44,288 nt of DNA from assembly GCA_946548715.1 (NCBI GenBank), contig CAMNPZ010000007.1:1-44288 (forward strand), read 5' to 3'. Below are positions 19,828 to 40,503 of this stretch, piece after piece. A program made the position numbers and the translations under genes. The stretch comes from an uncultured Candidatus Saccharibacteria bacterium. GTDB taxonomy: Bacteria; Patescibacteriota; Saccharimonadia; Saccharimonadales; Saccharimonadaceae. The notes below the pieces were generated by a model. That model did no database searches. It was not told where the DNA came from and was given only the letters and a program-made list of their open reading frames with translations. How positions within the stretch are numbered: the first letter of the stretch is position 1; every line of letters begins with the position of its first letter.

Positions 19828-19888
19828 AGGTGGTAAGATAATTAATAATGTGTCCTGAGTGTGGCGGGGCAGAGGAGGTAGAGTCCAG

Positions 19889-21419: not shown

Positions 21420-21455
21420 TGAGTGATTTAGCTATTGTTTTTTCGAATAATTGTG

Positions 21456-21461
21456 TATAAT
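21456..21461 (+). promoter_or_regulatory. -10 of the cell-wall hydrolase unit
   Basis: TATAAT here leaves a ~24-base leader before ATG 21486. An alternative upstream ATG at 21435 would lie before the promoter, which supports the internal start that also begins a good signal peptide. Confidence 0.5.
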
Positions 21462-21485
21462 AGTATAAAGGTTAAGGTTGTGTGT

Positions 21486-24400
21486 ATGAAAAGTTTGTTG
21501 AAAATTGGGCTATTGTTTTCGTTGATAGGTGTGTGTTCTTGGTTTTGTCTCTTTTTTTGTACTTCGGAAGTGATGGCGGAAGGTATCCCATATTCAACAT
21601 ATGGTGCTAATGGCATATATTTTTATAGTCCGTGTTGGATGAGCAATGGCGATGATGGCGCTTATGGTGATGGTACTAGTTATAAAATAAATCCTGATAC
21701 TCCTCCTGGTAGTGCAAATACCGAAGGTACTGGTGGTTTTTGGTATCTTGAGGGCAATTGGTCAAAATATCCTGAGACTGTGCTTAATTCAAGAAATGGA
21801 GGATTAGTGAAGCTAAATACTAGAATTGACAGTGACTTTTTTGATATGCCGTATATTCATGCTGAAAATTTCGATTTCAATTATAGTACTTGGCCAGTGA
21901 CAATAGTGCCAAATGGTAATCATAGTACACGAAAGTATTATTGGTTAGTGCTTCCGAATGAGGCGTATGCGGTGCACATGGGCGATATGTATGTTGCATA
22001 CTTTGAAAAGCGTAAGGAGCCAGTTTTCTTTATTCTGTATGATGTATGGTCGTGTGATGATCATTATCTAAGAGGGATGCATTATTGTGATTGGGCTAAG
22101 AAGGATCCAGACAACGTAAATGGTGGTTTGGCGAATAATTCTCTCGGCCACTTTTCGGAAAGGGGATCGACGGCGAATAATCAACTTGGGGATGCTTTGG
22201 GTAAGCTGACTTGCTTACATCGATTAACAACTGAAGGTGCAACTTTGGCTCGTGAATCTGCAAGCTGTAGTGGTTCAATTGATGTAGGTAATGAAGAAAG
22301 AGGAAGCAAAAAAGAGGAAAAGGATGCGGAGAAGAAGGATGAAGAGGAGACAGATACGGAAGAATCAAACGATAAGGAAGAGAGTTCGTCGAGTGATGCT
22401 GAAGACAATTTGAATAATGAAGGGACTAAAGCCGCATCATCTGATACGAAACTACATAAGCCAACGAATGAATGGTTAGATAAAGCTGGACTAGAGGGTT
22501 TTAAGATAGATAAAGCGCTTAATTCTCGAGCTGGCGGCAAACATATCGATACTAGCGCGATGACTATAGGGACAGATAATTATACTTCGTTTGCTAGTGC
22601 TGCTGGAGATGGAGCTGGATTGCCGGGGTTTATAGTCTTGCACTGGACGGCAGCAAATACTAGTGGCGTTTCTTGGACATATTTTTGTGGAGGAGATATG
22701 GATTACTATTGTCCACCGCATTTCGCAATAGATGTAGTGACAAAGGAGATACAGCAGTATTTTCCATTATCGAGTCCGTCTGCGGCAGTAGCTGGTAGTT
22801 CAGAAAACACGTGGGATCAATATGGAATACAAATTGAGGTGGTAGGGAGTCCTTACGATAAGGACGATTATGGGAATAATAGGCCAGAGTATAATATATA
22901 TAATTTTACCGATGATCAATATGAGTATTTGGCAAAACTATTGATTGCCATAAGTGATGAGACTGGTATTCCGCTGGAATCTAGCTTAAAATGGACTAAA
23001 GGGCAAGAGCAGGGAGAAGAGACAGCGCCGAAGCTTAGCCCTGCGGAGACGAAAAAGTATATAGGAGTATTGGGACACGAACATTTACCCGATCAGGCTG
23101 GTAAATGGGATCCGGGGAAAATGTGGGAGTATCTTGTTCCTGCACTGGAAAGATTGGGTTATAAGTATAATGCGAATGGTGGAAGCGGTGGCGGAAAACT
23201 TGTTTGCGCAGGTGACAAGAATACGAGTAGTTGTGGTGGGGCGAGGATTGCAGAGGTTGCCAGGGAGTTGGCTTGGCCAGATGATAATCATCATAATGAT
23301 ATAAAACCCGAATATGCGAAGGCGGCTACGGAAGTGGGTATAGCATCTGCTGCGACGAACTGGGATGGTTGGGCTGGTGGTGCGGCGGATTGTGGTCGTT
23401 TTGTGGCCGTAGTGGTGCGAAAGGCTGCTGACCCAGATTATCCTGCTTGTTGTACGGGACCTTTGCAACAATACATGTCTACCTCTTCGTCATGGGAGGA
23501 AATCCCAAACAATAATTCTGAGGATAATTTGGAACCGGGCGATGTGATGGTGGTCAATGCAGGAAGTGGCGAAGGTGCGAATGGGCATATTTATGTTTAT
23601 TTAGGCAATGGCGAGCAGGCGAGTGCATCTTTAAATGGATACACTGGTAAAATAAAACAGGGTGTTACGTTTGCGGATAGTCGTGGCAGTTATCATATTT
23701 TCCGTTATGTAGGCGCTGAAGACTGCGAGGGGGATGAGGGTGCTTCGATTGGCTCGTTCGATGAAGATTTAAAGGAGCTAGAAAAAGACGGGGGGAAGGT
23801 CGGTGTGGCTGTTTCTGCGCCTGGTAATAAGGACAAGGGTAAGGTTAAAATTGGTGGTTCTTGGAAGGGTGGTAGAGCATGGTCTACGATTAAGGTGCCG
23901 TTAGCGATTGCGGCTATTCAGGAAAATGTTAGTACTGGGGACGTGACTGAACCGTATGGGACTAGTTGCACTGGTTATTCTTTAAGTACCGCGGTGAATG
24001 CTGCGATTACACAATCTGATAACTGTGCAGCGTGGTGGTTGTGGGTGGCGTTGGGGGGTGATAATTCGTCTGCGGCTAGTAAAGTAACAGAGGTGATTAG
24101 GGCTGGAGGGGATTCGTCTACTGAGGTAAATGGCACTCGCAATGGTGATTATCTGACATCTGGTATGACTGATTGGTTGTTGGTTGAGCAAGCAATTTTT
24201 GCGGCGAATATGTCGTCTATATCTAAATCTGCGGATGTGCTTTCGGCGATGCGAACGCATAACGCTAGTGATGGGAGCCATGGTTTGGCAAGCAATTATA
24301 CCTCGATGATAAAGGGTGGTTGGGGCGATTCGGATGGTGCTGCAACTAGACAATTCGGTTTGATTAAGCTCAAAAATGGGAAATGTTCAGCGGTGGCGAT

Positions 24401-24506
24401 TGGGACCGACAAAGGTTCAAATTTTTCGATGCTTGATAAAATAGTTAAGGTGCTATTGAACCATGAGGACGATTTGCCGGTAGGTAGTTGTCCGGAGGGG
24501 CTTTAA
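21486..24506 (+). CDS. Secreted amidase, peptidase-like, beta-lactamase-like protein
   Basis: This 1006-residue protein has a signal peptide (M-K-S-L-L-K ... V-M-A-E-G, ~1-32). An N-terminal region of unknown function (~35-260) is followed by a Glu/Lys/Asp/Ser-rich linker (~265-313). Next is an N-acetylmuramoyl-L-alanine amidase-2/PGRP-like domain (~360-560) with zinc-ligand candidates H386 (V-L-H-W-T-A), H531 (G-H-E-H) and the Asp of K-W-D-P-G. Then comes a CHAP/NlpC-like Cys-His domain (~600-725) with C636 (A-D-C-G-R-F) and H701 (N-G-H-I-Y-V). The C-terminal domain (~740-1000) is class A beta-lactamase-like, with S800-T-I-K803, S844-D-N and K943-G-G. It probably cuts peptidoglycan outside the cell. 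Three membrane proteins follow directly. Confidence 0.8.
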   Translation: MKSLLKIGLLFSLIGVCSWFCLFFCTSEVMAEGIPYSTYGANGIYFYSPCWMSNGDDGAYGDGTSYKINPDTPPGSANTEGTGGFWYLEGNWSKYPETVLNSRNGGLVKLNTRIDSDFFDMPYIHAENFDFNYSTWPVTIVPNGNHSTRKYYWLVLPNEAYAVHMGDMYVAYFEKRKEPVFFILYDVWSCDDHYLRGMHYCDWAKKDPDNVNGGLANNSLGHFSERGSTANNQLGDALGKLTCLHRLTTEGATLARESASCSGSIDVGNEERGSKKEEKDAEKKDEEETDTEESNDKEESSSSDAEDNLNNEGTKAASSDTKLHKPTNEWLDKAGLEGFKIDKALNSRAGGKHIDTSAMTIGTDNYTSFASAAGDGAGLPGFIVLHWTAANTSGVSWTYFCGGDMDYYCPPHFAIDVVTKEIQQYFPLSSPSAAVAGSSENTWDQYGIQIEVVGSPYDKDDYGNNRPEYNIYNFTDDQYEYLAKLLIAISDETGIPLESSLKWTKGQEQGEETAPKLSPAETKKYIGVLGHEHLPDQAGKWDPGKMWEYLVPALERLGYKYNANGGSGGGKLVCAGDKNTSSCGGARIAEVARELAWPDDNHHNDIKPEYAKAATEVGIASAATNWDGWAGGAADCGRFVAVVVRKAADPDYPACCTGPLQQYMSTSSSWEEIPNNNSEDNLEPGDVMVVNAGSGEGANGHIYVYLGNGEQASASLNGYTGKIKQGVTFADSRGSYHIFRYVGAEDCEGDEGASIGSFDEDLKELEKDGGKVGVAVSAPGNKDKGKVKIGGSWKGGRAWSTIKVPLAIAAIQENVSTGDVTEPYGTSCTGYSLSTAVNAAITQSDNCAAWWLWVALGGDNSSAASKVTEVIRAGGDSSTEVNGTRNGDYLTSGMTDWLLVEQAIFAANMSSISKSADVLSAMRTHNASDGSHGLASNYTSMIKGGWGDSDGAATRQFGLIKLKNGKCSAVAIGTDKGSNFSMLDKIVKVLLNHEDDLPVGSCPEGL

Positions 24507-25172
24507 ATGGAAGATGATTTAGAAAAGAATACTTTTTGGGGCATTAGACCAGATCCTGCTAAGACTGTACCGATTGTTGTCGGGTGTGGTGTTCTGATAT
24601 TCTTGGTAATAATAGTTGTAGCAATCAAAACTTACATAGAAGCCAATCAGCCTCGAATTGATTTGCTGTATACTCCTGAATCTGCGATGATATCATTGGA
24701 CGGGGAGGCGGTAGTAAAATCGGGGGAGATAACACTATCAGCTGGTAAACACGAGATAAGGGCAGAGAAATATGGCTTTGAACCTGTCGAGATGACAATT
24801 GAGGTAGGATGGGGAGAAGCGACACCGGTTCATATTGTAATGACACCTAATACAGAAGAGGCCAAAGATTGGTATACGATTAATGAGAATGACGGGCGAA
24901 TTGCCGAGGGCGTGATGGGATATAGATATAATGCGGGTTCGGACGAGATGATTAGGCGATATCCTATTCTGGCCAAGTTGCCGATTTATGAGGAAGATTT
25001 TTATATTTATCAGCAAGGGTGTGAGGAATTTAAGGTATGTATTCTTATCGATACCAATGAGGATTACTTTGATGACGCGATTGAATATTTTCGTAAAGAA
25101 TTGGACGATGATCTAGGTAAATATCGTTTTATTTTCTATGATTATAGTAATCCATTCATGGGGGAGGGATAG
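24507..25172 (+). CDS. Single-pass membrane protein with PEGA-like domain
   Basis: The 221-residue protein starts immediately after the hydrolase stop. A short cytoplasmic N terminus precedes one membrane helix (~22-45). A PEGA-like beta domain follows (~50-112: P-E-S-A-M-I-S-L-D-G-E, then L-S-A-G-K-H-E-I-R-A-E-K-Y-G-F-E-P), the surface-layer-associated repeat domain. The C-terminal half (~115-221) is an unassigned acidic domain with two cysteines in the Y-Q-Q-G-C-E-E-F-K-V-C segment. It probably stands on the outer face of the membrane and helps position or regulate the hydrolase, by analogy only. Confidence 0.6.
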   Translation: MEDDLEKNTFWGIRPDPAKTVPIVVGCGVLIFLVIIVVAIKTYIEANQPRIDLLYTPESAMISLDGEAVVKSGEITLSAGKHEIRAEKYGFEPVEMTIEVGWGEATPVHIVMTPNTEEAKDWYTINENDGRIAEGVMGYRYNAGSDEMIRRYPILAKLPIYEEDFYIYQQGCEEFKVCILIDTNEDYFDDAIEYFRKELDDDLGKYRFIFYDYSNPFMGEG

Positions 25173-25174
25173 AG

Positions 25175-25621
25175 ATGGAATATGAGCATGAAAGAGGATT
25201 ATCGAAGACAAATAAAATAGCTATTATTGTTGGTACGGCGATAATTTGTCTTGTGGCGATAATAGGCGTGATTATTGCGATTAACGCTAATTCTTCTTTT
25301 AGAGCTTCAAATGATGATGCGGATTTGGCGACTCAAATAGAAAGCGAGAAGGTCAAAATTGCGGATGTTTTTAAGAGGAGGTTTCAATTCTTGAATGATA
25401 GATATAGAATCGAAAAAATTGTACTGACGAATGAAGGGGAATATGGGGTAGTTCTTTTGAAGCTGAACTCTGCGAGCTATAGATCGATTCTTAGAAAGGA
25501 GAACGATAAATGGACTGTGGTTGGTGTACCAGCGGTTGTGCTGTATTATGAGGATTTTCAAGAGATACCGAGGGATGTGGTGCGTGCAGCAAATGATTTA
25601 GGGAGTGGTAAAAATGAATAA
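25175..25621 (+). CDS. Single-pass membrane protein, unknown
   Basis: The 148-residue protein has a basic cytoplasmic N terminus, one membrane helix (~14-38: A-I-I-V-G-T-A-I-I-C-L-V-A-I-I-G) and a ~105-residue outer domain. I do not recognise the domain, although its start (Q-I-E-S-E-K-V-K-I-A-D-V-F) looks helical and its core (G-V-V-L-L-K-L-N) beta. GGAGGG just before the ATG gives a strong start. It lies between two PEGA-like proteins, with a 2-base gap upstream and an 8-base overlap downstream, so the four genes behave as one translated unit. Confidence 0.55.
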   Translation: MEYEHERGLSKTNKIAIIVGTAIICLVAIIGVIIAINANSSFRASNDDADLATQIESEKVKIADVFKRRFQFLNDRYRIEKIVLTNEGEYGVVLLKLNSASYRSILRKENDKWTVVGVPAVVLYYEDFQEIPRDVVRAANDLGSGKNE

Positions 25622-26273
25622 AATTAAGAATTTATTAAGTCAACATAAAATAGCAGCTGTTTTGTCGTGTGCGGCAATAATATTACTATTAGCGGTGGGT
25701 GCGATAGTTTTGAAGCCGCAGAATAATGCTAATTTATTGGTAAATGTGGCTCCTACAGATGCGAAAATTGTGATAGCGGGACAAACGTATGGTAATGGAA
25801 TGCTTAGGAATATGACTCCGGGGCATTACGTTGCAGATATTGTGAAAGATGGTTTTGAGAGTAAGACGATTGAATTTGACCTCAAAAATGATGAGGTTGT
25901 TTATGTAAACGAATATTTAATACAGTCAGATTTGGGATTTGATTATTATGAAACGGATAGTGGTAGTTTATTAGTGTTACGTGAATATGCGGAGGCGCAT
26001 GAGGATGATGCGGAATTAAAATCATTTTTAGAGAATTATGAAAAGAAAAGAACAATCGTGAATATTTTGCCACTTGAATACAAAGATGAAATAACAGGAG
26101 GGTTTTATAAGGTGGATTATATGGAAAAGAATCTTGCATGTAAAAAGAATTATTGCATAACTATTAGTACGAACGACGATATTTATACTGAAGCGGCGTT
26201 TGCGGCCATGAAAGCCCATGGATACGATTTGAACGATTATACTATAATTGACCTCTCTGATAGATGCGATTAG
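25614..26273 (+). CDS. Second PEGA-like membrane protein
   Basis: The 219-residue protein has the same layout as the 24507 product: a short basic N terminus, a membrane helix (~14-35), a PEGA-like domain (~38-100: V-A-P-T-D-A-K-I-V-I-A-G, then M-T-P-G-H-Y-V-A-D-I-V-K-D-G-F-E) and a C-terminal domain ending in an N-x-D-x-Y-x-E-A-A pattern. The two C-terminal domains share C-x...-N-x-D-D/E-x-Y-x-x-A spacing, suggesting duplication. ATG 25614 was preferred over GTG 25605 because GGGAG sits at proper distance; the overlap ATGAATAA couples it to the gene before. Confidence 0.6.
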   Translation: MNKIKNLLSQHKIAAVLSCAAIILLLAVGAIVLKPQNNANLLVNVAPTDAKIVIAGQTYGNGMLRNMTPGHYVADIVKDGFESKTIEFDLKNDEVVYVNEYLIQSDLGFDYYETDSGSLLVLREYAEAHEDDAELKSFLENYEKKRTIVNILPLEYKDEITGGFYKVDYMEKNLACKKNYCITISTNDDIYTEAAFAAMKAHGYDLNDYTIIDLSDRCD

Positions 26274-26292
26274 CAATTACCTTTGAGCAGTG

Positions 26293-26301
26293 TGGTATAA
26301 T
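26293..26301 (+). promoter_or_regulatory. ackA extended -10 promoter
   Basis: TGGTATAAT, followed by AAAGGAG at 26307-26313 and ATG at 26321. This is one of the promoters in the window that keeps a conventional Shine-Dalgarno leader. Confidence 0.6.
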
Positions 26302-26320
26302 TGAGTAAAGGAGTTATTTT

Positions 26321-31304: not shown

Positions 31305-31739
31305 ATGAGAAGGATAATAAGAATTGTTTTACCAATTATAGCAATTACAATAGTAAGTCTTAGTCTTGTGGGGCTTGGGTCAGTGTCGGCGTTGACTTTG
31401 CAGGAGGGTGCGGAGGCTGCGCGGTGCGATGGTTGTCCTGCTGATCTTTTTGGACCAACTGGTGCTTTCCGGCAGATTACGAATACGATTCTGTATATCG
31501 TGGGCATTATTGCGGTAATTATGTTGATTATTGGTGGAATTAAATACGTGATATCTGGTGGTGATTCGAAGAAGGTTACTGATGCGAAAAATACGGTGCT
31601 TTATGCGATTATCGGGTTAGTGATTGCAGTGTTTGCGTATGCAATTGTGAATTTTGTGATTTCAGCTTTGCCAAATTCTGGGCAGCAGATTGAAACTCAA
31701 GATAATGTCTCTTTAGTCGAGACGACTGAGAGTCAGTAG
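31305..31739 (+). CDS. VirB2/TrbC-like pilin-type protein
   Basis: The 144-residue protein has an N-terminal signal-like helix (~5-30), a short outer segment with C-D-G-C, then two membrane helices (~60-82 and ~97-120) separated by the short loop S-G-G-D-S-K-K-V-T-D-A-K. This is the TrbC/VirB2 pilin layout, common in CPR genomes. The loop and following N-T-V-L-Y-A-I-I-G-L-V are shared with the other pilin-like proteins at 33095-34765. VirB2-type subunits form the pilus or channel of type IV secretion systems. The tail is polar and acidic. The 3' end overlaps the converging comF by 27 bases. Confidence 0.75.
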   Translation: MRRIIRIVLPIIAITIVSLSLVGLGSVSALTLQEGAEAARCDGCPADLFGPTGAFRQITNTILYIVGIIAVIMLIIGGIKYVISGGDSKKVTDAKNTVLYAIIGLVIAVFAYAIVNFVISALPNSGQQIETQDNVSLVETTESQ

Positions 31740-32408
31740 TGCGAGAATGATTTTAGATACTCCAGCTTGCTGGAGTATTTTAATGCAGGCGTGCATGGAA
31801 GCGCCGGTGGTCCAGACGTCATCTAACAGAATATAGGTGGCTTGTGGGTCGATGGTGGCATATGAGGCTATATTGTAGGCGTTGGTGGCTTGAAGGATGC
31901 GCGTGGCGCGGTCGGTGCCAACTTGGGTTGTATTATTAGTGCGAATAAGTAGTTGTCTGGAGGTACAATTCGGCGCTTTGAGCTTGGCGAGGTGTTTGGC
32001 GATGAGTTTGATATGGTCGAATCCACGAGAACGGACGTGTTTGTCGATAGTGGGAAGAGGGACAATGACAGCTGGAGTATCTTGTGGTGGAAGAAATTCG
32101 TGCATGAGTTCGGCAAGAGGACGAGCTAGGGCGCGGATGGACTTGTACTTGTAGTCGTGAACGATATTGCCGAGAAGACCAGAGCGTTCGCCAATGACAT
32201 AAATAGGCGGTAGAGCTGGACAATTGGAACATTTGCCAGATTCGGTGGGTGATTTACAGTGTGGACAAACGGCCTGGTGGTTGGTTTTGATGTAAAGTTT
32301 ACAACGTTCACATAAGACAGTACCAATTTGGCCGCAACCCCTACAGGAGTGAGGCATGAGTAGGTCAAAAAGGTTAGGAAATGTTGTATTTTTTACAATA
32401 TTTTGCAT
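31713..32408 (-). CDS. comF: ComF-family phosphoribosyltransferase-like protein
   Basis: The 231-residue protein has an N-terminal double zinc-ribbon-like region (C-R-G-C-G, C-E-R-C, C-P-H-C, C-S-N-C) and a type I phosphoribosyltransferase-like domain with the PRPP loop Y-I-L-L-D-D-V-W-T-T-G-A-S (~195-207). This is the ComF/GntX arrangement; in Bacillus and Haemophilus relatives ComF takes part in uptake of single-stranded DNA during transformation. ATG 32408 begins the domain; a longer in-frame extension would run antisense into hsp20 and is rejected. It is divergent from hsp20 across 64 bases. Confidence 0.85.
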   Translation of the reverse strand: MQNIVKNTTFPNLFDLLMPHSCRGCGQIGTVLCERCKLYIKTNHQAVCPHCKSPTESGKCSNCPALPPIYVIGERSGLLGNIVHDYKYKSIRALARPLAELMHEFLPPQDTPAVIVPLPTIDKHVRSRGFDHIKLIAKHLAKLKAPNCTSRQLLIRTNNTTQVGTDRATRILQATNAYNIASYATIDPQATYILLDDVWTTGASMHACIKILQQAGVSKIILALLTLSRLD

Positions 32409-32438
32409 GATTCTCTTGATTTTACTACGATGTTCGTA

Positions 32439-32444
32439 TATAAT
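32439..32444 (+). promoter_or_regulatory. -10 of the hsp20 gene
   Basis: TATAAT lies 28 bases before ATG 32473, with GTGGAGG at 32462-32468 as Shine-Dalgarno sequence. No CIRCE is visible here, unlike at groES and dnaJ. Confidence 0.5.
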
Positions 32445-32472
32445 AAAGCATAACAATATAAGTGGAGGAAAT

Positions 32473-33006
32473 ATGGCACGTACAAAAAGTGACGATTTGC
32501 TGATGGAGGACGAGCTGGCTGCGGCGTTCTTGGGTGGAGACGAAGAAATGATGTCTCCAATTGAGAATTCAGAGCCAGTAGTCGAAGATACTCCAATGGT
32601 AGAGGATGTACCCATGACCGAAGGGGAAGTCAGCGAACCAGTCGAAGATGAGTGGGCAAACGATACCGACGATTTTCCTGGACAGCTCGCTGTGGATGTC
32701 TATGAAACCGCCGATAAACTAGTAGTAAAAGCTCGTACAGCTGGGATATCAAAATCCGATCTCGATGTGAGTATTTCGGATAATATTCTGACGATATCTG
32801 GTGTGCTATCTGGGGGAGAAGATGAGAAGACGACTAGATGGCATATTCAAGAATGCTATTGGGGTGAGTTTTCTCGTACGATTGCATTGCCCGTACAGGT
32901 ACGCGAGGATGAGAATAGCGTGAAGGCTGAGCTGAAGGATGGAGTGCTCACGATTACCTTTGAGAAGGAAAAAACTGAGCAGCCGAAGAAGATTGCGATA
33001 CAATAG
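32473..33006 (+). CDS. Small heat-shock protein, Hsp20 family
   Basis: The 177-residue protein has a long acidic N-terminal extension (~1-65, rich in E, D, P and V) and then an alpha-crystallin domain (~70-165): L-A-V-D-V-Y-E-T-A-D-K-L-V-V-K-A, the G-I-S-K-S-D-L-D-V-S-I turn, and the closing D-G-V-L-T-I-T-F-E. It ends K-K-I-A-I-Q, a C-terminal I-x-I-type motif used in oligomer contacts. It holds unfolded proteins without ATP. The upstream in-frame ATG at 32356 lies before the promoter, so 32473 is used. A terminator follows. Confidence 0.88.
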   Translation: MARTKSDDLLMEDELAAAFLGGDEEMMSPIENSEPVVEDTPMVEDVPMTEGEVSEPVEDEWANDTDDFPGQLAVDVYETADKLVVKARTAGISKSDLDVSISDNILTISGVLSGGEDEKTTRWHIQECYWGEFSRTIALPVQVREDENSVKAELKDGVLTITFEKEKTEQPKKIAIQ

Positions 33007-33016
33007 TTTGAGTTAA

Positions 33017-33047
33017 AAAAAATATCCCCGTTTGGGGATATTTTTTT
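33017..33047 (+). terminator. hsp20 terminator
   Basis: AAATATCCCC and GGGGATATTT pair around GTTT, extended by flanking A and T runs. It starts 11 bases after the hsp20 stop and ends in a T run. The mirrored A run lets it also stop reverse transcripts from 33095-33394. Confidence 0.9.
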
Positions 33048-33094
33048 AACTATTTTGGTTGTTTCAATGCTTTCGTATTTCTGGTGAGAGACTA

Positions 33095-33394
33095 TTAGTT
33101 TTGTCCAATGATATTTTTGATGACGAAGTTGACTAACGCAAATGCTAGTACGCATATCACTAGTCCGATTAAACCATAAAGAATAGTATCCTTGCCTTTT
33201 TTAACTTTGCCAGCATCACCAGAAGATGTCATATAATTAACGCCTCCGATAATCATGACTACGACACAAACTATACCAAGTATTGCAATGATTGCATTGA
33301 TTATGTTTGTTATATTGGTTACTAAATCATCTCCGCCACCGTTAACTACATCGACTTTTGGCAATTCTGCGAGCTTTGTGATTATATCTTTCAT
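33095..33394 (-). CDS. VirB2-like small membrane protein, short form
   Basis: The 99-residue protein has an amphipathic start (K-L-A-E-L-P-K-V-D-V-V), then two membrane helices (~28-50 and ~72-92) joined by Y-M-T-S-S-G-D-A-G-K-V-K-K-G-K-D-T. It is the minimal version of the pilin-like module and lacks a long signal peptide. AAAGGATA-like bases precede the ATG. It is last in a three-gene reverse series of the same family, separated from the next by 59 bases. A pilus or channel subunit role follows from the VirB2 family and its location. Confidence 0.7.
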   Translation of the reverse strand: MKDIITKLAELPKVDVVNGGGDDLVTNITNIINAIIAILGIVCVVVMIIGGVNYMTSSGDAGKVKKGKDTILYGLIGLVICVLAFALVNFVIKNIIGQN

Positions 33395-33453
33395 TGTTTA
33401 TCCTTTGTTTAACTTGTTTTTATTGTATAACGATTATTCATAAAATGCAAGGA

Positions 33454-33936
33454 TTATTTCGTTTCCTGCTTGGGGGTGTTGGCGGAATTAGCTTTGGGCT
33501 GAGCGGCATTGTTGGCGTCTTCTTGTTGGCTATTGTTCGAGCTGCGTCCTGGAATAATATTTGTAATAACAAAATTAACGATAGTGAAGGATAGGGCGAC
33601 AATAGCGAGGCCGATAGCGGCATAGAGGATGGTTTTTTTGGCTTTTTCGAGTTTGCCAGAGTCGCCGGCTGATGTCATGTAATTAATGCCGCCGATGAGA
33701 ATGAAAATGACCGCGACAATGCCGCTGACGGCAATGATGGCGTTTAGTATGCCGGTAATGAGGCCAGGGAGGGCGTTACTATTACCGTAGCATCCAGCGG
33801 CTTTTTTGACTTCGCTGGGGGCGCTACTTGAACAAACGTCGTTCTGTGCGTAGGTTGGGAGCGTTGTGGTAAGGGTATTAAATCCTAGGGCGCTGATAGC
33901 GATTATGAAGATGGTTTTAAGGATTTTTGATTTCAT
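33454..33936 (-). CDS. VirB2-like pilin protein
   Basis: The 160-residue protein has a signal peptide (~1-30, ending T-T-L-P-T-Y-A), an outer segment with two cysteines (V-C-S-S... A-G-C-Y-G), two membrane helices (~62-84 and ~104-125) linked by Y-M-T-S-A-G-D-S-G-K-L-E-K-A-K-K, and a polar Asn/Gln/Ala-rich tail. This is full VirB2/TrbC-like architecture. AAAGGAG lies before the ATG and inside the end of the upstream two-module gene, which it overlaps by 20 bases. Confidence 0.75.
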   Translation of the reverse strand: MKSKILKTIFIIAISALGFNTLTTTLPTYAQNDVCSSSAPSEVKKAAGCYGNSNALPGLITGILNAIIAVSGIVAVIFILIGGINYMTSAGDSGKLEKAKKTILYAAIGLAIVALSFTIVNFVITNIIPGRSSNNSQQEDANNAAQPKANSANTPKQETK

Positions 33937-34765
33937 GTAACTCCTTTGAAATTATAGTTTGGTTAGTATAGCTAGCGGCATTATTGGCATCGCGAATCAT
34001 GCCGGAAACGAAGGCGGTGATGGCCTCGGCAAGAGCAACGATGGCGAGACCGATGAGGGCGTAGATGATGGATTGTTTGGCTTTTTGAAGTTTGGTGGGG
34101 TCACCGGAAGAAGTGATATATGAAATAGCTCCGTAGACTACGAAGATTAGTGCTACTACGCCAGCTATAGCAATGAACCATTGAATGGCGTGAGTGACGA
34201 CATCATTGGCATTGACACAGCCTGCGCCTGTTTCGCTCAGGAGGTCGCAGTTGAATTTGCCGCTGGCGCCGAGAAGGGCAAACCGGATAGTGCTAAGGAT
34301 AAGATAGGCGGACATGACGATGGCGAGGCCGATAAAAGCATTAGTGAGGGTTTTCTTGCCAGAGGCGGCTTTGTTGGGATCGCCGTAGGAAAACATATAG
34401 AGATAGCCACCGTAGATAACGAAACCGATTACTAAGTAGGCTGCAATGATAGTGATATCGGTGGCGACATTGGCGGCAATTTGTAAGATTCCGGCTTTGA
34501 GCGAGTCTTCGTCGGATATGTTGACGCCGCAATCCCATGAGGTGAGGCCGAGGAAGCCATAGCGGCAGGTGCCTTTAAAAGGAGCACTAGCTGTGGAACC
34601 GTTAGACTGTTTGGAGCTGTCATAGCTGCCGGGCGTGGCCATGCATTTTTGATAAGCATTCGTGTCTTGAATGCCTTTGCAATCGTTGGCAGCATAGGCT
34701 GGGGTTGCGATAAACGTCCAGGAGGTTAAGATTAGGAATAATGGTAAGATGATTTTCTTTAACAT
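33917..34765 (-). CDS. Double VirB2-like membrane protein
   Basis: The 282-residue protein has a signal peptide (~1-25, ending P-A-Y-A), a cysteine-containing outer region (~26-85), then two consecutive pilin-like modules. Module 1 (~95-165) carries S-Y-G-D-P-N-K-A-A-S-G-K-K, and module 2 (~190-260) carries S-S-G-D-P-T-K-L-Q-K-A-K-Q. Each has two membrane helices, so four in all. The second module is closer to the single-module proteins next to it, suggesting a fusion or internal duplication. A role as a minor or anchoring subunit of the pilus is only a guess. Confidence 0.7.
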   Translation of the reverse strand: MLKKIILPLFLILTSWTFIATPAYAANDCKGIQDTNAYQKCMATPGSYDSSKQSNGSTASAPFKGTCRYGFLGLTSWDCGVNISDEDSLKAGILQIAANVATDITIIAAYLVIGFVIYGGYLYMFSYGDPNKAASGKKTLTNAFIGLAIVMSAYLILSTIRFALLGASGKFNCDLLSETGAGCVNANDVVTHAIQWFIAIAGVVALIFVVYGAISYITSSGDPTKLQKAKQSIIYALIGLAIVALAEAITAFVSGMIRDANNAASYTNQTIISKELHEIKNP

Positions 34766-34780: not shown

Positions 34781-34866
34781 GTATTACGAAAAAAAGTCCA
34801 AAAAAATGACCGAGATTGTGGTTATGCCATTTTGTTGACTAATTGGGAAATAATAGGGGGTTATTA

Positions 34867-34895
34867 TTGACAAAAATGCTTATGTGTGCTATAAT
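34867..34895 (+). promoter_or_regulatory. Consensus promoter of the VirB6-like gene
   Basis: TTGACA at 34867-34872, exactly 17 bases, then TATAAT at 34890-34895 with TGC before it. It is the best match to the sigma-70 consensus in the window. The GGGAGG at 34912-34917 and GTG at 34924 follow. Confidence 0.85.
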
Positions 34896-34923
34896 TAGTT
34901 TACGCCTAATTGGGAGGCGACAC

Positions 34924-37900
34924 GTGATTATGAAAGTCAAGATAACTTCGAAATTGAGAAAAATAGGGGTTTGTTTTGCGGTTTTTTTGACTCTGATAAC
35001 TAGTGTTACAGGGGTGGATTTGATACGTGGAATTGAGGCATATGCAGAACCGGTCGAAACTACAACTTCGACGACTCTGGAAGAGGAGCCACAGGAGGTC
35101 GTACAGGAAAGCACGCAGAATACTGATGGTCAGGCAACAACATCGGAACCCAATACTATTACAACAGATGGTCAGAGTGAAAATAATAGTGAAACGAATG
35201 CTGAAAGCGATCAGAATACAGATGATGCAAATAATTCGAGCATTGTGTCTGATTCGGATACGAAAGCTGATGGTTGTAAAACTAGTATGGGGGCGATTGG
35301 TTGGATAGTATGTCCAGTGATGGAAAAGGTCTCTGAGGCAGTAGATTGGCTATATAAGAAAATAGAGGATATATTGCTGATTGATCCGATTCCGGCAGAG
35401 GATGGTACACCGATTTATGAGATTTGGAAATACTGTTTGAGCGTAACCAATGTGGTGTTTATTATTTTCTTATTGATAGTGATTTATTCACAGTTGACTG
35501 GGTTGGGAATTACGAATTATGGTATCAAGAAGACGTTGCCGAAGTTGATAGTGATGGCGATTTTGGTAAATTTGAGCTTTTTGATTTGTTCGCTAGCAGT
35601 GGATGTTTCGAATATCGTAGGCCATGGGCTAAGGAGTGTTTTTGCTGCGGTGGAAGAGACGGCGCTTGCGAATATGGGTAGTACGGCAAATTCTACTGCC
35701 GCAGCGGTATCAACAGCGGAGATGTATACTTCTTTGGCCGGCGGTACGGCGTTGGCGGTGGGTGGTGGCACGATTGCGTTTGAGCTTGGTGCGATATGGA
35801 TGTTAATCCCGACATTATTAGGTGCTATAGTGGCAGTAGCGACTGGGTTGATTACGATTGCTTTAAGACAAGCAGTAGTGATGCTGCTTGTGATGATTTC
35901 GCCGTTGGCGTTTGTAGCGAGTATTTTGCCAAATACGGAGGGGCTATATAAGAAGTGGAAACAGCTATTGACGAGAATGTTGGTGTTCTATCCGATGTTC
36001 TCGCTATTGTTTGGGGCGTCGTCGTTGGCTGGATTTGCGCTCATTATGAGTGCAAAGGATGGATTTGGGCTATTGCTTGGGGTGGCAGTGCAAGTATTCC
36101 CGCTATTCTTCTCTTGGAAGTTAATGCAAATGAGCGGAACCTTCTTGGGTGATATTAACGCACGGATGCGTGCGCTCACGGCAAAGCCAATGGCGGCAAA
36201 TCGAGCTTGGGCGGATTCGCATCGACAGCTATCGCATCAACGAAGATTGGCTATGGGAAGGACTCCTTCGGCTAGGTTGATGCAATTTATGTCGAATAGG
36301 AAGATGGCCAGGGAAGAAGAGGCGAGCGAAATGGCAGAAACAGCTAAACTACGAGGGCAAGCTTATGCAGCGAGACGAAACTATCGTCAGAATGGTCTAC
36401 CATCACGTGAGGGTGAAGAAGCATATGCGAGACAAGCGCAGAATATGCAATATACGCATGAAATTGAAAGACATAAGAATAACATGAATATGGGGTTGGG
36501 TCAATTGGCTGTGGTGCAAAGTGGTGCTAGCGTGGCACAGAAGGCTAGATTGGCGCGACTTGATTTGGCTAATGTAGAAGCGGCAGACAAGTTAAAGATC
36601 GAAAAAGCGCGAGGCGAAAAGATAGAATACGAGAATGCAAAGGGTTTCCACAAAAGAATGGAAGAAGCGATCAACGTGCATTTTGATGATGAGAATCGTG
36701 GTAAAAGTGAATATAAGGCACATGATATCAAAGACGTTGCGTTTGCTAGGGCAAAGTATGCCACGACGCATCAACTGATGGAGGGCGACGTGCAAGGTAT
36801 TCATTATGCAGCGGCAACGGCGGCGCAGGGCTATGATACGCAAAAGAAAATTGTGGAAACGAAGATGCAGAAATATTTTGATATGACACCGCCAACGAAG
36901 GACGTGGAATATAGATTGGGCGAGTTGACAAGGAATAGGGATGCAATTGATAATGTTGATTCAATTATATCTGGCTTAAGAGTGTTGAACCAGCGAGGAG
37001 ATACGCACCTGGCTAAAAAATATATGAATGAATTATTAAGCCACGGAGTGCAGCTTGGTACGCATGCTTCGCAAGCTTTGGCTAGTTTCTTGATGTTTGA
37101 AGTTAAGGATAGTGACCCTTATTTGAGACGATTTGGTAAATATATCAATCTAGAGACGGCACGCATATACAATAAAAACGATAGACAGGTGATGAATGTA
37201 ACGTATGATGAGTATCTTAGAGGGTATCATGATGGAGAACCGGATACTGGCAAATATCCTGGTGGTAGAATGTATGCAAAGAAGGGTGCAAAGCAGTTGC
37301 TTGAGGGTACTTCGCTAGATAATATTGAACGGACCGCATTGTCGAGTTTTGATGAGAGTTTGAAGGCGGCTTATGGATTTAAGAAAGATGATAAGGCGAA
37401 GGATTGGGACGTTAGCGGATATCTAAAGAGGCGCGAGGAGATTCAAACTGCCTTTGAGCCAGCGTTCTTATCGGCAAGCTTGAAATGGCTATCGGGAAGT
37501 GAACAGATTAATTCCGGTGTAAAATTCTGGACTGGCTATGAGCAAAAGCAGAAAACGAGGAAAGTGATGGTGGATGGTAAGGAAGTTGACCAGGTTGAAG
37601 TTGACGAAAATGGTAACCCGCTTTACGAATGGGTGCCTGTGTGGAAAGATAAAAAGAATGGATTTGAGGGTCGTGAAGAAGATGTTGAAAAATACTTCCG
37701 TCGTAAGACGAGAGATTATTTCAATGATCAGACAACTGGACAGATTTTGGGTATGCGAACGGATTATCGTGAGCCTGCGGTTGAACATTTACTGGGTATG
37801 TATTTTAACGACGAAAATGCTAGTAGAGAAGAGCTGGATGCACGAAAAGCCGAGTATGAAGCAACTAGAGCAGAAATTCAAACTCGCTATAGGGGCGAAG

Positions 37901-38454
37901 ATGCTGCTACGGCAGAGAAGAAACGAAAGGCAGATATGACAGCCCTCAAAAGAGAGTTTGCTGGTCGTCAGTTGAGAGGTATACTAGATAAGACTGGTAA
38001 GTTGGAACAAATATATGCTACCCGTCGTTCGGGTGCAGCGAATAATGCTAAAGACTGGTTACGTAAAATGCTTAATTTGGACAATAAAGATGAAATATAT
38101 AGATACTTGGACCAGAAAGATAAGCAACATAAGAAGGCCAAGGCTCAAACTAGTACGCAGATGGCTAGCGGCGATGATGCGGGTGGAACGGCGTCTTACG
38201 ATGATCCAGCATTTAGAACAGGTGTGGCAGCTAGACTATGGAAAGTGTTTGATGAGACTGGAGATGCTCCGGACCCTGATGATGATTTCTTTGCTAGGTC
38301 AGTTGAATTAATAACGAAGTCTTTTGGGGCGGATAGTATAATTGAAAAGAAATATCGAAAATTTAGGGAGGATACTCCACGAGCAAGTAGGGGTGAATTG
38401 TTTGATAAGATAGAAGAAATACTAAGTGAATTCTACGCGGAAAATGAGAGCTAG
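34924..38454 (+). CDS. VirB6/TrbL-like type IV secretion membrane protein
   Basis: The ~1176-residue protein has a signal peptide (~1-40), a Thr/Ser/Glu/Asn-rich outer segment (~45-115), and a membrane core (~175-420) with several hydrophobic helices, including Q-A-V-V-M-L-L-V-M-I-S-P-L-A-F-V-A-S-I-L-P, the R-Q-A and S-P-x-A-F pattern of VirB6/TrbL-like proteins. A very long, charged, helical cytoplasmic part (~430-1176) follows, with no recognised domain. GTG 34924 was chosen because GGGAGG lies 6 bases upstream (ATG 34930 is 12 away) and earlier in-frame starts fall in or before the promoter. It likely forms the inner-membrane channel. Confidence 0.7.
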   Translation: MIMKVKITSKLRKIGVCFAVFLTLITSVTGVDLIRGIEAYAEPVETTTSTTLEEEPQEVVQESTQNTDGQATTSEPNTITTDGQSENNSETNAESDQNTDDANNSSIVSDSDTKADGCKTSMGAIGWIVCPVMEKVSEAVDWLYKKIEDILLIDPIPAEDGTPIYEIWKYCLSVTNVVFIIFLLIVIYSQLTGLGITNYGIKKTLPKLIVMAILVNLSFLICSLAVDVSNIVGHGLRSVFAAVEETALANMGSTANSTAAAVSTAEMYTSLAGGTALAVGGGTIAFELGAIWMLIPTLLGAIVAVATGLITIALRQAVVMLLVMISPLAFVASILPNTEGLYKKWKQLLTRMLVFYPMFSLLFGASSLAGFALIMSAKDGFGLLLGVAVQVFPLFFSWKLMQMSGTFLGDINARMRALTAKPMAANRAWADSHRQLSHQRRLAMGRTPSARLMQFMSNRKMAREEEASEMAETAKLRGQAYAARRNYRQNGLPSREGEEAYARQAQNMQYTHEIERHKNNMNMGLGQLAVVQSGASVAQKARLARLDLANVEAADKLKIEKARGEKIEYENAKGFHKRMEEAINVHFDDENRGKSEYKAHDIKDVAFARAKYATTHQLMEGDVQGIHYAAATAAQGYDTQKKIVETKMQKYFDMTPPTKDVEYRLGELTRNRDAIDNVDSIISGLRVLNQRGDTHLAKKYMNELLSHGVQLGTHASQALASFLMFEVKDSDPYLRRFGKYINLETARIYNKNDRQVMNVTYDEYLRGYHDGEPDTGKYPGGRMYAKKGAKQLLEGTSLDNIERTALSSFDESLKAAYGFKKDDKAKDWDVSGYLKRREEIQTAFEPAFLSASLKWLSGSEQINSGVKFWTGYEQKQKTRKVMVDGKEVDQVEVDENGNPLYEWVPVWKDKKNGFEGREEDVEKYFRRKTRDYFNDQTTGQILGMRTDYREPAVEHLLGMYFNDENASREELDARKAEYEATRAEIQTRYRGEDAATAEKKRKADMTALKREFAGRQLRGILDKTGKLEQIYATRRSGAANNAKDWLRKMLNLDNKDEIYRYLDQKDKQHKKAKAQTSTQMASGDDAGGTASYDDPAFRTGVAARLWKVFDETGDAPDPDDDFFARSVELITKSFGADSIIEKKYRKFREDTPRASRGELFDKIEEILSEFYAENES

Positions 38455-38511
38455 GAAGATTGATTGGAATTAGTTGGTCCGATTTGTTGGTTATGTTTAT
38501 ATTGATTTTTA

Positions 38512-38520
38512 TGATATAAT
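38512..38520 (+). promoter_or_regulatory. Extended -10 promoter of prgI-virB4 genes
   Basis: TGATATAAT ends 6 bases before ATG 38527, with no Shine-Dalgarno sequence. Predicted leaderless start of the PrgI, TraC-like and VirB4 operon. Confidence 0.6.
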
Positions 38521-38526
38521 AGTATT

Positions 38527-39483
38527 ATGGCGCAGTATAAGGTGCCTCAGGATGTTGAGGCGGACGATAAATTACTCGGACCGTTTAGTTTTCGGCAGTT
38601 CGTGTATCTTTTGATTGCTGGTGGGTTGGTAGCGCTGGCGGTGGGGCTTTTTCAATTGTTTCCGTTGCTTGCGATAATTCCGGTGCCGTTTATACTGTTA
38701 CTCGCAGTGTTGGCGTTGCCTTTGAAAAAAGATCAGCCGATGGAGACATATCTTGCAGCGATTGTGTCATATTATCTGAAACCGCGTACGAGGCGGTGGA
38801 CGCCAGGGCAACGAGAATCTACTATTATGATAACGGCTCCCAAAAAACGTGACGATGACGAAGTGAGGACGCGCGACATAACGGGCGAAGAAGCAACGCA
38901 CAGATTGTCTTTTTTGGCAGATATTGTTGATACGGAAGGATATGCGATTAAAGGGGTTGGTCAACAAAAGGTAAATGATGAGCTAGTGGCTGAGGCGAAC
39001 ATGACGAATGATATTTTTGAGACGAATCATTTTGATAATCTGGAGTCCACGATTGCTAAGGACGAGAATGACCGCCACGCTAAGGTAATAAGGGAAATGC
39101 GTGAGGCGATAGAGGAATCCGAGAAGATTGATGGCGAGGTTAAAGTTGAGGAGCGGGATAATACGTTGTATGGCGGAAGTAATGAACCTGTAGACGGTGT
39201 AAGCTCGACTGAGAATGTGTCTAGAGATAATGCCGTGAGTGGGGCGCCGAATTTTGATTCGCCGGTGGTTGTAATGCCCGAGTCTAGGCCTGAAGAGCAG
39301 AGAAAGGAACCGGCGGATGCGGCACGCAGGAAAGAAGAATTTGAAAAAAGTAGACAAATTGCGGTAAAACCTAGTATAATAGAATTAGCAAACAATCCTG
39401 ATTTTTCAATCGCGACATTGTCAAAGGAAGCAAACAGAATAAAGGAAAGGGATGAGGGTGAGGTTTTTATCTCTCTGCATTAA
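38527..39483 (+). CDS. PrgI-family membrane protein
   Basis: The 318-residue protein starts M-A-Q-Y-K-V-P-Q-D-V and then L-G-P-F-S-F-R-Q-F-V-Y, the PrgI N-terminal pattern, followed by two membrane helices (~24-43 and 46-66) and P-M-E-T-Y-L. In Gram-positive-type type IV secretion systems PrgI corresponds to VirB3 and sits beside VirB4. Its C-terminal ~220 residues form a long acidic cytoplasmic extension not present in typical ~120-residue PrgI proteins, perhaps contacting VirB4. The following gene begins after 3 bases. Confidence 0.8.
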   Translation: MAQYKVPQDVEADDKLLGPFSFRQFVYLLIAGGLVALAVGLFQLFPLLAIIPVPFILLLAVLALPLKKDQPMETYLAAIVSYYLKPRTRRWTPGQRESTIMITAPKKRDDDEVRTRDITGEEATHRLSFLADIVDTEGYAIKGVGQQKVNDELVAEANMTNDIFETNHFDNLESTIAKDENDRHAKVIREMREAIEESEKIDGEVKVEERDNTLYGGSNEPVDGVSSTENVSRDNAVSGAPNFDSPVVVMPESRPEEQRKEPADAARRKEEFEKSRQIAVKPSIIELANNPDFSIATLSKEANRIKERDEGEVFISLH

Positions 39484-39486
39484 ACT

Positions 39487-40503
39487 ATGAATCCACAACA
39501 GAATGAACCGACTATTATGATGCCAGGACAAGTTCCTATGTCTGGGCAGATGCCAATGCCAGGGCAAATGCCGATGTCTGGACAGGTGCCAAATACGATG
39601 CCAGGACAAGTTCAAAATATAATGCCCGGGCAAGCACAAACTATGATGCCAGGACAGGCATTGGGTGCGATGCCGGGACAAGTGCAAGGTGGTGCGCAGG
39701 GGCCACAGGTGCTCATGCCGAATCAGGCTCCGAATGCGGCTAGCTTGGGTGCGGCGGCGATAGCGGCCAATCAGCAAGCACCGGTTTCGCCGAATCATGA
39801 CGTACCAACTTCGACGCAGTCGACTTTGTTGATTTCGGAGTTAAGGGATAATGTGGTGATTATGAAAGATGGGTCGTTCCGTGCGGTGGTGGCTTGCAAA
39901 TCGATTAACTTTGATCTTATGAGCGATATGGAGCGAGAAGGTGTAGAATACTCGTATCAGAATTTCTTAAATTCGCTAAAGTTTACGATTCAGATTCTGG
40001 TTAGGTCCCAAAAGGTAGATATTGGGCCGTATATTGAGAAATTATCCGAGATTCGCCGTAACAATGATAATATGTTGCTTGGGGTGTTGATGGATGACTA
40101 TATCAATTTTATTGATATTTTGTCGCAAGAGGCAAATATTATGGATAAGTCGTTCTTCATCGTGGTTCCGTATTATACTTCGGTAGATGCGGAGAAGGCT
40201 TTGGAACAGACGAAGAATTTCTTCAAATCGTTTTCTAAGGCGAAAGGCCCTGCGGTGACGAGAATAGATCGGGCTACATATGAGAAGGCTCTGACTGAGC
40301 TCACAAACCGAGTGGATTCAGTGATGTCGGGATTATTCCAGATTGGTATCCATTCGGTGAGATTAAATACTAGGGAATTAGCTGAACTTTATTATAACTT
40401 TAATAACCCTGATACGGCCGTAAGGGAGCCTTTGGTGGATTTCTCGAGGTTGGCTACGTTGTATGTGAAGAGGGCTGATGGAAAGGAGGCGCAGAATGGC
40501 TAG
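39487..40503 (+). CDS. TraC-like VirB4-associated protein
   Basis: The 338-residue protein has a repetitive N terminus (~12-67, Met/Pro/Gly/Gln-rich) and a TraC-like domain (~110-325): S-T-L-L-I-S-E-L-R-D-N-V-V, D-G-S-F-R-A-V-V-A-C, and S-F-F-I-V-V-P-Y-Y. This resembles the N-terminal part of VirB4/TraE ATPases but without Walker motifs. It ends by overlapping the VirB4 gene by 8 bases. It probably accompanies the ATPase at the cytoplasmic face of the channel. No Shine-Dalgarno sequence is seen within the 3-base gap, so it is likely coupled to prgI. Confidence 0.75.
   Translation: MNPQQNEPTIMMPGQVPMSGQMPMPGQMPMSGQVPNTMPGQVQNIMPGQAQTMMPGQALGAMPGQVQGGAQGPQVLMPNQAPNAASLGAAAIAANQQAPVSPNHDVPTSTQSTLLISELRDNVVIMKDGSFRAVVACKSINFDLMSDMEREGVEYSYQNFLNSLKFTIQILVRSQKVDIGPYIEKLSEIRRNNDNMLLGVLMDDYINFIDILSQEANIMDKSFFIVVPYYTSVDAEKALEQTKNFFKSFSKAKGPAVTRIDRATYEKALTELTNRVDSVMSGLFQIGIHSVRLNTRELAELYYNFNNPDTAVREPLVDFSRLATLYVKRADGKEAQNG
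39520..39687 (+). repeat. Eight MxGQ peptide repeats
   Basis: Eight copies of M-P/S-G-Q are encoded, first at 6-residue spacing (four copies) and then at 8-residue spacing (four copies). The DNA copies differ at several positions, so repeats are maintained at protein level rather than being a recent expansion. This segment is low-complexity and probably unstructured. Confidence 0.85.

What the first reader, a model, noticed from the sequence alone, without database searches (positions are those of the whole stretch)
21486..26273. Three-catalytic-domain cell-wall protein coupled to three membrane proteins
One secreted ~1006-residue protein appears to combine an amidase-2/PGRP domain (H386, H531), a CHAP/NlpC-like domain (C636, H701) and a class A beta-lactamase-like domain (S800-x-x-K, S844-D-N, K943-G-G). 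The four genes are separated by -8 to +2 bases, and all three small partners are single-pass membrane proteins with outer domains, two of them PEGA-like. Amidase, endopeptidase and serine-acyltransferase activities in one polypeptide would be a compact wall-cutting device. In an episymbiotic CPR organism it might act on the host wall rather than its own; that is speculation.
Basis: partly seen in the sequence, partly recalled or inferred. Interest (0 to 1): 0.72.

Follow-up and report, generated by a model that had tools for sequence, protein, structure and literature searches.

The report
Plug-in cell-wall cutter, secretion-system kin
A tiny parasitic bacterium carries one secreted protein with three different cell-wall-cutting enzymes, made together with three membrane partners; in close relatives the same gene set sits in the locus of the type IV secretion system, so it probably opens the cell wall for that machine, and its parts look interchangeable between species.

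Summary
P0001 (window 21486-24506, 1006 aa) has a complete zinc-amidase site (H386, E451, H531, D542), an NlpC/CHAP-like C636/H701 site and a class A beta-lactamase-fold domain (S800xxK, SDN, KGG) that lacks the deacylating glutamate. It forms a tight operon with two PEGA single-pass proteins and one with a predicted NTF2/cystatin-like domain. (1) In three relatives the same CHAP-BLA gene and its partners are kept together. In two of them (G022, G088) the set lies just downstream of virB4, and in the third (G008) it sits in the same position beside recF-dnaN. A wall hydrolase follows virB4 in 22 of 31 congeners and 14 of 15 genomes of other families. (2) These hydrolases swap catalytic domains freely but keep one short N-terminal motif (YxxNxIxFYxP, residues 39-50 here), nearly absent from other proteins. 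(3) The nearest plasmid and phage matches to the lactamase-like and amidase domains are actinobacterial, like the usual hosts. (4) The genome has a second such protein (lysozyme + GDSL + C39). Best reading: a VirB1-like wall-opening module of the epibiont's type IV secretion system, in a new modular form. Which wall it cuts is open; no activity is shown.

The parts
21486..24506 (+). P0001, secreted 1006-residue modular wall hydrolase (signal peptide - N-terminal motif - NTD - acidic linker - amidase - CHAP/NlpC - class A beta-lactamase-like)
21486..21578 (+). signal-peptide-like N-terminus of P0001 (about residues 1-31, hydrophobic)
   Evidence: sequence itself; no signal-peptide predictor was run
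21600..21644 (+). constant N-terminal motif YGANGIYFYSPCWMS (residues 39-53), shared with most other Saccharibacteria wall hydrolases of this kind whatever their catalytic domains
   Evidence: PWM: 68 of 83 hydrolases against 2 of 834 other ORFs and 0 of 830 shuffles; held-out tests, window left-out score 30.4; unseen second protein of the genome scores 26.6
21585..22271 (+). N-terminal domain of unknown fold (residues 34-262), found in six other hydrolases of the genus, each next to a PEGA gene
22275..22475 (+). acidic, low-complexity linker (about residues 264-330)
   Evidence: sequence itself
22482..23207 (+). Amidase_2 domain; H386, E451, H531, D542 invariant in 17 relatives
23214..23723 (+). 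CHAP/NlpC-like cysteine peptidase domain, C636 and H701
23751..24503 (+). class A beta-lactamase-fold serine domain; S800-T-I-K803, S844-D-N, K943-G-G; no conserved Glu166 equivalent
24507..25172 (+). gene 2: single-pass membrane protein, PEGA domain plus a small C-terminal domain with a near-conserved Cys pair
   Evidence: partner family found in most hydrolase loci
25175..25621 (+). gene 3: single-pass membrane protein with an outer helix + four-strand (NTF2/cystatin-like) domain
   Evidence: AlphaFold mean pLDDT 81.9, most of the outer domain above 90; fold matches weak, Z 7.5 or less
25614..26273 (+). gene 4: PEGA single-pass membrane protein, paralogue of gene 2
31305..34765 (.). four T4SS pilin genes (PF18895) on both strands, part of the T4SS locus
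34843..42322 (+). T4SS core: VirB6-like 1203-aa gene, PrgI (VirB3-like), third gene, VirB4 ATPase. In most relatives a hydrolase/PEGA set lies directly downstream of this block; in the window dnaJ follows instead
   Evidence: the VirB6-like label is by position and size only (no Pfam match)

Best explanation
This is the wall-opening module of the Saccharibacteria (CPR epibiont) type IV secretion system, in a form specialised in this lineage. P0001 is exported by Sec (inferred) and held at the cell surface through its constant N-terminal motif, probably by the PEGA and NTF2-like single-pass partners encoded with it (inferred). There the amidase cuts between MurNAc and the stem peptide, the NlpC/CHAP domain cuts within the peptide, and the lactamase-fold domain acts as a DD-peptidase-type serine enzyme on D-Ala-D-Ala ends or cross-links (activities inferred from folds and conserved residues). 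Together they would loosen peptidoglycan at the contact site so that the T4SS can cross the envelope, as VirB1/PrgK/TraG do in Gram-positive conjugation. The membrane partners would do the positioning that VirB8 does elsewhere. Shown by computation: domains, complete catalytic residues, the operon, conservation of the gene set, its T4SS-locus position in close relatives, and the motif. Not shown: any activity, membrane tethering, contact with the T4SS, or which cell's wall is the substrate.
For: (a) The CHAP-BLA enzyme with genes 2-3-4 is kept in order in G022, G008 and G088; in G022 and G088 it lies between virB4 and recF/dnaN, and in G008 beside recF/dnaN. (b) A recognisable wall hydrolase lies within 8.5 kb downstream of virB4 in 22 of 31 informative congeners and 14 of 15 informative genomes of other families, often with PEGA partners. 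(c) In G026 the order is virB4 - hydrolase - PEGA/gene-3 fusion - dnaJ; the window has virB4 directly before dnaJ and the set 8.6 kb before virB6, as if moved. (d) Gene 2 and gene 3 are fused in several relatives. (e) The N-terminal motif holds across different catalytic domains. (f) Literature: the T4SS is essential for epibiotic growth of Ca. S. epibionticum (PMC10633639), and peptidase and lysozyme genes just downstream of its virB4 are reported essential (PMC12102498); VirB8 homologues bind VirB1 homologues (PMC12857230).
Against: In this genome the set is not next to virB4, and many motif-bearing hydrolases of the genus lie far from T4SS genes, so the link may be partial. No lytic transglycosylase, a hallmark of most VirB1 proteins, is present in P0001. 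The NTF2/VirB8-like resemblance of gene 3 is weak (Z 7.5 or less, tied with unrelated and designed proteins). The lactamase-like site is lost in G008, so its catalysis is dispensable at least there.
Confidence: 0.55

Rival explanations
1. A host-directed lysin independent of the T4SS: the protein is released or surface-displayed and digests the actinobacterial host wall for adhesion, feeding or exit. The enzyme modules were captured from Actinobacteria or their phages.
For: The lactamase-like domain matches only actinobacterial plasmid proteins among 72,556 plasmids (Rhodococcus, Nocardia, Tsukamurella, Dietzia; 31-40% identity), sharing AWSTIKVPL, SDN, KGGWGxD and RQFG. The amidase matches only Brevibacterium phage endolysins among 50,697 phages (30%). 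Many family members are not near T4SS genes.
Against: It does not explain why hydrolase and partners so often follow virB4 or why membrane partners are kept. The plasmid and phage collections sample unevenly, so actinobacterial origin is inferred, not shown.
Confidence: 0.22
2. Ordinary housekeeping: the set remodels the epibiont's own wall during growth or division.
For: Saccharibacteria are monoderms with peptidoglycan, and the neighbours murI and ackA are housekeeping genes. Other CHAP proteins without the motif exist in the genome.
Against: Housekeeping hydrolases usually keep a steady domain make-up. This family swaps domains even within a genus, and CHAP-BLA is in only 5 species. The motif is absent from the plain CHAP proteins of the same genome.
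Confidence: 0.13
3. A wall-binding adhesin whose enzyme domains serve mainly for binding, as proposed for inactive VirB1 homologues in some Gram-positive systems (PMC12857230).
For: In G008 all three serine-enzyme motifs are changed (KTMS for STIK, DEN for SDN, AGG for KGG).
Against: The amidase and CHAP catalytic residues are invariant or nearly so across 17 and 48 relatives, and the serine motifs are intact, with one SDN-to-SNN change (G022), in the other four CHAP-BLA species.
Confidence: 0.06
4. The lactamase-like domain is a true beta-lactamase giving antibiotic resistance.
For: Pfam Beta-lactamase2 above cut-off and class A fold; CPR class A-like proteins with some beta-lactamase activity have been reported (PMC9145738).
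Against: No conserved glutamate at the Glu166 position, far below NCBIfam's class A cut-off (16.7 against 200 bits), and fusion to wall hydrolases.
Confidence: 0.03

Closest known systems
VirB1-like multidomain peptidoglycan hydrolases of Gram-positive T4SS (PrgK of pCF10, TraG of pIP501, Orf14 of Tn916)
   Same: Multi-enzyme extracellular wall hydrolase, with a CHAP domain, encoded with VirB3/VirB4/VirB6-type genes in relatives
   Different: Amidase and class A beta-lactamase-like domains instead of lytic transglycosylase/LytM; separate PEGA and NTF2-like single-pass partners; constant N-terminal motif with swapped catalytic domains; in this genome not adjacent to virB4
T4SS locus SEML1_0006-0019 of Ca. 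Southlakia epibionticum, with essential peptidase and lysozyme genes downstream of virB4 (PMC10633639, PMC12102498)
   Same: Same class of organism and same place relative to virB4 as in the relatives studied here
   Different: The lactamase-like domain, the N-terminal motif and the PEGA/gene-3 partners are not mentioned in the passages read
Cyanobacterial PBP-A (PMC11189452)
   Same: Class A beta-lactamase fold without the catalytic glutamate; PBP-A is a DD-carboxy/endopeptidase
   Different: PBP-A belongs to a cyanobacterial family of its own; here the domain is fused to an amidase and a CHAP domain
Secreted 'serine hydrolase/hypothetical' proteins of Rhodococcus, Nocardia, Tsukamurella and Dietzia plasmids
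   Same: Shared AWSTIKVPL, SDN, KGGWGxD, RQFG signature in those aligned, 31-40% identity
   Different: Those examined are stand-alone, about 300 aa or less, not fused to wall hydrolases; function unknown
Endolysins of Brevibacterium phages AGM1 and relatives
   Same: Amidase_2 domain, 30% identity
   Different: Phage lysis genes with wall-binding repeats, close to a holin gene

Membership tests
N-acetylmuramoyl-L-alanine amidase (Amidase_2/PGRP) | profile match over cut-off and zinc/catalytic residues | tested here: met
   33.2 bits against 26; H386, E451, H531, D542 invariant in 17
CHAP/NlpC-P60 cysteine peptidase | profile match over cut-off | tested here: not met
   NLPC_P60 16.8 bits against 23
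CHAP/NlpC-P60 cysteine peptidase | conserved catalytic Cys and His in the family | tested here: met
   C636 47 of 48, H701 48 of 48; solved cell-wall hydrolase matched, E 0.004
class A beta-lactamase (enzyme) | fold and SxxK, SDN, K(T/S/G)G motifs | tested here: met
class A beta-lactamase (enzyme) | deacylating Glu166 in the omega loop | tested here: not met
   no conserved Glu in the five sequences or across the wider alignment; judged by sequence only
VirB1-like T4SS hydrolase | secreted multidomain wall hydrolase | tested here: met
VirB1-like T4SS hydrolase | encoded in a T4SS gene cluster | tested here: inconclusive
   yes in G022, G088 and G102; in the window 8.6 kb upstream of virB6, separated by ackA, groES/groEL and other genes
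VirB1-like T4SS hydrolase | lytic transglycosylase (SLT) domain | tested here: not met
   no SLT match in P0001 at E 10 or less; another family's protein at the same place has SLT (L125)
VirB8-like (gene 3) | single-pass protein with outer NTF2-like fold | tested here: inconclusive
   confident helix + four-strand model; TcpC 3ub1 Z 5.7 and TraE 5wii Z 5.5 in a tied list topped by designed cystatin folds, Z 7.5
PEGA proteins (genes 2, 4) | PEGA profile over cut-off | tested here: met
   gene 2 23.8 bits; gene 4 21.5 in the genome scan, 19.3 in the protein scan; cut-off 20.8

The most novel reading that the evidence does not exclude
Saccharibacteria run a plug-in wall-lysin system that works like polymorphic toxins. 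A constant N-terminal docking motif accepts interchangeable catalytic cassettes, some captured from their actinobacterial hosts or the hosts' phages. PEGA/NTF2-like membrane partners stand in for VirB8 and couple it to the T4SS, so that the epibiont opens the wall of a particular host at the contact site and host range follows the cassette set.
Probability: 0.25. Interest if true: 0.85.

Novelty: new variant of a known kind. Interest (0 to 1): 0.6.

Why it matters
How CPR epibionts get through, or fuse with, the wall of their actinobacterial hosts is an open question. Their T4SS is essential but lacks recognised VirB8 and, in most classes, VirB4-linked VirB1 (PMC12102498). The work here names concrete candidates for both roles, shows that wall hydrolases do follow virB4 in most Saccharibacteria sampled (including ones that VirB1 profiles would miss), and gives a short N-terminal motif by which such proteins can be found in any genome. 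If cassettes track hosts, they could be read as markers of host range.

Tried and rejected
Viral origin of the whole protein: the lactamase-like and amidase profiles found no relative in IMG/VR viral contigs, and no phage record covers more than the amidase. True beta-lactamase: rejected for lack of Glu166 and very low NCBIfam score. Type IV pilus linkage of the T4SS-independent hydrolase loci: one locus (L024) has pilM nearby, but its other neighbours examined are an FtsJ-type methyltransferase, EF-P and SSB, and another locus (L067) has an amino-acid permease and a deiminase, so no pilus link is claimed. PDB searches with gene 3 and gene 2/4 family profiles, and a Pfam scan of the gene 3 family, gave nothing significant. 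A promoter scan of 21,000-26,500 found more sigma-70-like sites than shuffles on average but within 2 sd, so no operon promoter is claimed. The genome's other PEGA protein (C5, 474 aa) has no wall hydrolase of these profiles beside it. No structure was obtained for residues 1-574 or genes 2 and 4, because only two predictions were allowed.
Full report
OBSERVATION. The four genes are as described. P0001 runs from ATG 21486 to stop 24504-24506. Genes 2 (24507-25172), 3 (25175-25621) and 4 (25614-26273) follow with spacings 0, +2 and -8. Pfam places Amidase_2 at 381-545 and Beta-lactamase2 at 799-974, both over cut-off, and NLPC_P60 at 626-715 below cut-off. Family alignments add support: the amidase site H386/E451/H531/D542 is invariant in 17 relatives, C636 is kept in 47 of 48 and H701 in 48 of 48 CHAP relatives, and the lactamase-like motifs are intact in four of five relatives, with SNN for SDN in G022.

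THE LACTAMASE-LIKE DOMAIN. AlphaFold with the four homologues from ruminant-gut Saccharibacteria gives a class A beta-lactamase fold (mean pLDDT 74; Z 20.3, rmsd 2.9 over 224 residues). The omega-loop glutamate is not conserved: the only nearby Glu of the window sequence is replaced by T, S or another residue in the others. This resembles PBP-A, a class A-like DD-carboxy/endopeptidase without that glutamate (PMC11189452), and points to a DD-peptidase-type activity rather than resistance. The domain occurs in 5 species of the genus and in 4 of 393 genomes sampled from the order, all of this genus. In one of the five (G008) all three motifs are destroyed (KTMS, DEN, AGG). A protein of another family, G057, has a separately arranged Beta-lactamase2 (118-286) + CHAP (607-702) at the same place after virB4. 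Its domain does not match the genus profile above noise, so the combination seems to have arisen twice; that is inferred.

THE SECRETION-SYSTEM LINK. The window itself carries a T4SS locus at 31.3-42.3 kb: four PF18895 pilins, a VirB6-like gene (by size and place), PrgI, a third gene and VirB4. I took the DNA downstream of virB4 from the relatives G000-G059, a list drawn by kinship and not for having a hydrolase. In the genus part (G000-G035), 31 loci hold enough downstream sequence and 22 have a recognisable wall hydrolase within 8.5 kb; in other families of the order 14 of 15 do (Pfam for those missed by my profiles). The fifteenth has a same-sized secreted gene near a PEGA gene but no Pfam match. 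These counts are read from the tables. A formal null was not computed; with roughly half a dozen such hydrolase genes in a 780-kb genome, chance would give a few percent (inference). The usual order is virB4 - about 900-aa protein - hydrolase - PEGA protein - recF/dnaN, or virB4 - hydrolase - PEGA - dnaJ in another group. In G022 and G088 the very set of the window (CHAP-BLA, gene 2, gene 3, gene 4) lies in this interval; G008 has it next to recF/dnaN, with its contig starting just before. In G102 the enzyme is there without recognised gene 2-4 homologues. In G026 the order is virB4 - hydrolase - PEGA fusion - dnaJ, whereas in the window virB4 is followed directly by dnaJ and the set lies between murI and ackA. 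The homologue of the about 900-aa protein lies on another contig of this genome. So the set has probably moved away from virB4 in this lineage (inferred).

MODULAR ENZYMES WITH ONE CONSTANT MOTIF. Across the loci the hydrolases combine glucosaminidase, phage-tail-lysozyme, amidase, CHAP/C39, M23, SLT, GDSL and lactamase-like domains in many orders. Just after the signal peptide most carry a short motif, consensus FSQNNIYFYDP. A position matrix finds it in 68 of 83 hydrolases, against 2 of 834 other ORFs and 0 of 830 shuffled hydrolase N-termini. That matrix was trained on the same set, so I repeated it held out: trained on odd-numbered loci it finds 30 of 35 in even-numbered ones, with 9 of 700 shuffles and 5 of 845 other ORFs; it also carries over when proteins with a given domain type are left out, and the window protein left out scores 30.4. 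A protein not seen before, on contig C4 of the window's own genome, scores 26.6; it contains phage-lysozyme, GDSL and C39 domains and is followed by a single-pass gene with a weak gene-2-like match. The plain CHAP proteins of this genome lack the motif. In other families the motif is looser (for example SGVYYFDI...C, GTSYYNPS..C). Its function is unknown; docking to the membrane partners is my guess. Common descent of the N-terminus with replacement of the rest explains the pattern equally well and does not exclude docking.

THE MEMBRANE PARTNERS. Genes 2 and 4 are paralogues (shared matches), each a transmembrane helix, a PEGA domain and a small C-terminal domain with a near-conserved Cys pair. 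Members of this family lie beside hydrolases at T4SS loci and elsewhere. Gene 3 has a confident model, a long helix then a four-strand sheet and a short helix. Its closest solved folds are cystatin/NTF2-like with Z up to 7.5; the list includes the conjugation proteins TcpC (3ub1, Z 5.7) and TraE (5wii, Z 5.5), both of VirB8 type from my own knowledge, but at a level that can be a common arrangement. Genes 2 and 3 are fused in several relatives. Since no VirB8 was found in a structure-based analysis of S. epibionticum (PMC12102498) and VirB8 binds VirB1 elsewhere (PMC12857230), these partners are candidates for that role.

ORIGIN OF THE MODULES. Among 72,556 plasmids the only matches to P0001 are seven, all Mycobacteriales, to the lactamase-like domain (31-40%), with shared AWSTIKVPL, SDN, KGGWGxD and RQFG in those aligned. 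Among 50,697 phages the only matches are Brevibacterium phage endolysins to the amidase domain. Both point to Actinobacteria, the known hosts of cultivated Saccharibacteria (PMC10633639). Chromosomal Actinobacteria could not be searched here, so direction of transfer is open.

MECHANISM AND VERDICT. The best reading is a VirB1-like wall-opening module with an unusual enzyme set; confidence 0.55. Which wall is cut is not settled. Published genetics say the T4SS, and peptidase and lysozyme genes next to virB4, are essential in a cultured relative (PMC10633639, PMC12102498), which fits. It works like VirB1; strict membership fails on the transglycosylase domain and is inconclusive on position in this genome. 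I rate it a new variant of a known kind.

Noticed in passing
L141:5661-7781 (-), contig C4 of the window's genome: A second motif-bearing three-catalytic-domain protein (phage-tail lysozyme, GDSL esterase-like, C39 peptidase) with a single-pass partner downstream; with P0001 it would cover both glycan and peptide bonds.
   Followed up: partly
L128:10842-13094 (+): Independent Beta-lactamase2 + CHAP protein downstream of virB4 in a different family of the order, with the domains in reverse order.
   Followed up: partly
L105:192-3035 (+), same as L022: CHAP-BLA homologue in which all three serine-enzyme motifs are lost while the CHAP Cys/His remain.
   Followed up: yes
window 19859-20752 (+): Membrane-anchored protein with weak matches to the WxL-interacting-protein peptidoglycan-binding domain and fn3-like folds, two genes upstream of P0001; no homologue in the loci compared.
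   Followed up: no
L027:4847-7534, L026:3519-6152 and others; L134:8422-11349 in the window's genome: A roughly 900-aa protein of unknown family between virB4 and the hydrolase in many genomes; some contain M23+CHAP or VanY domains (L063, L102). In the window's genome its homologue lies on another contig.
   Followed up: partly
L147, L149, L150: Actinobacterial homologues of the lactamase-like domain are secreted proteins of unknown function on plasmids; two lie near a Ser/Thr kinase or VWA and PP2C phosphatase genes.
   Followed up: no
window 31305-34765: T4SS pilin genes of this locus lie on both strands (one +, three -) upstream of the VirB6-like gene.
   Followed up: no
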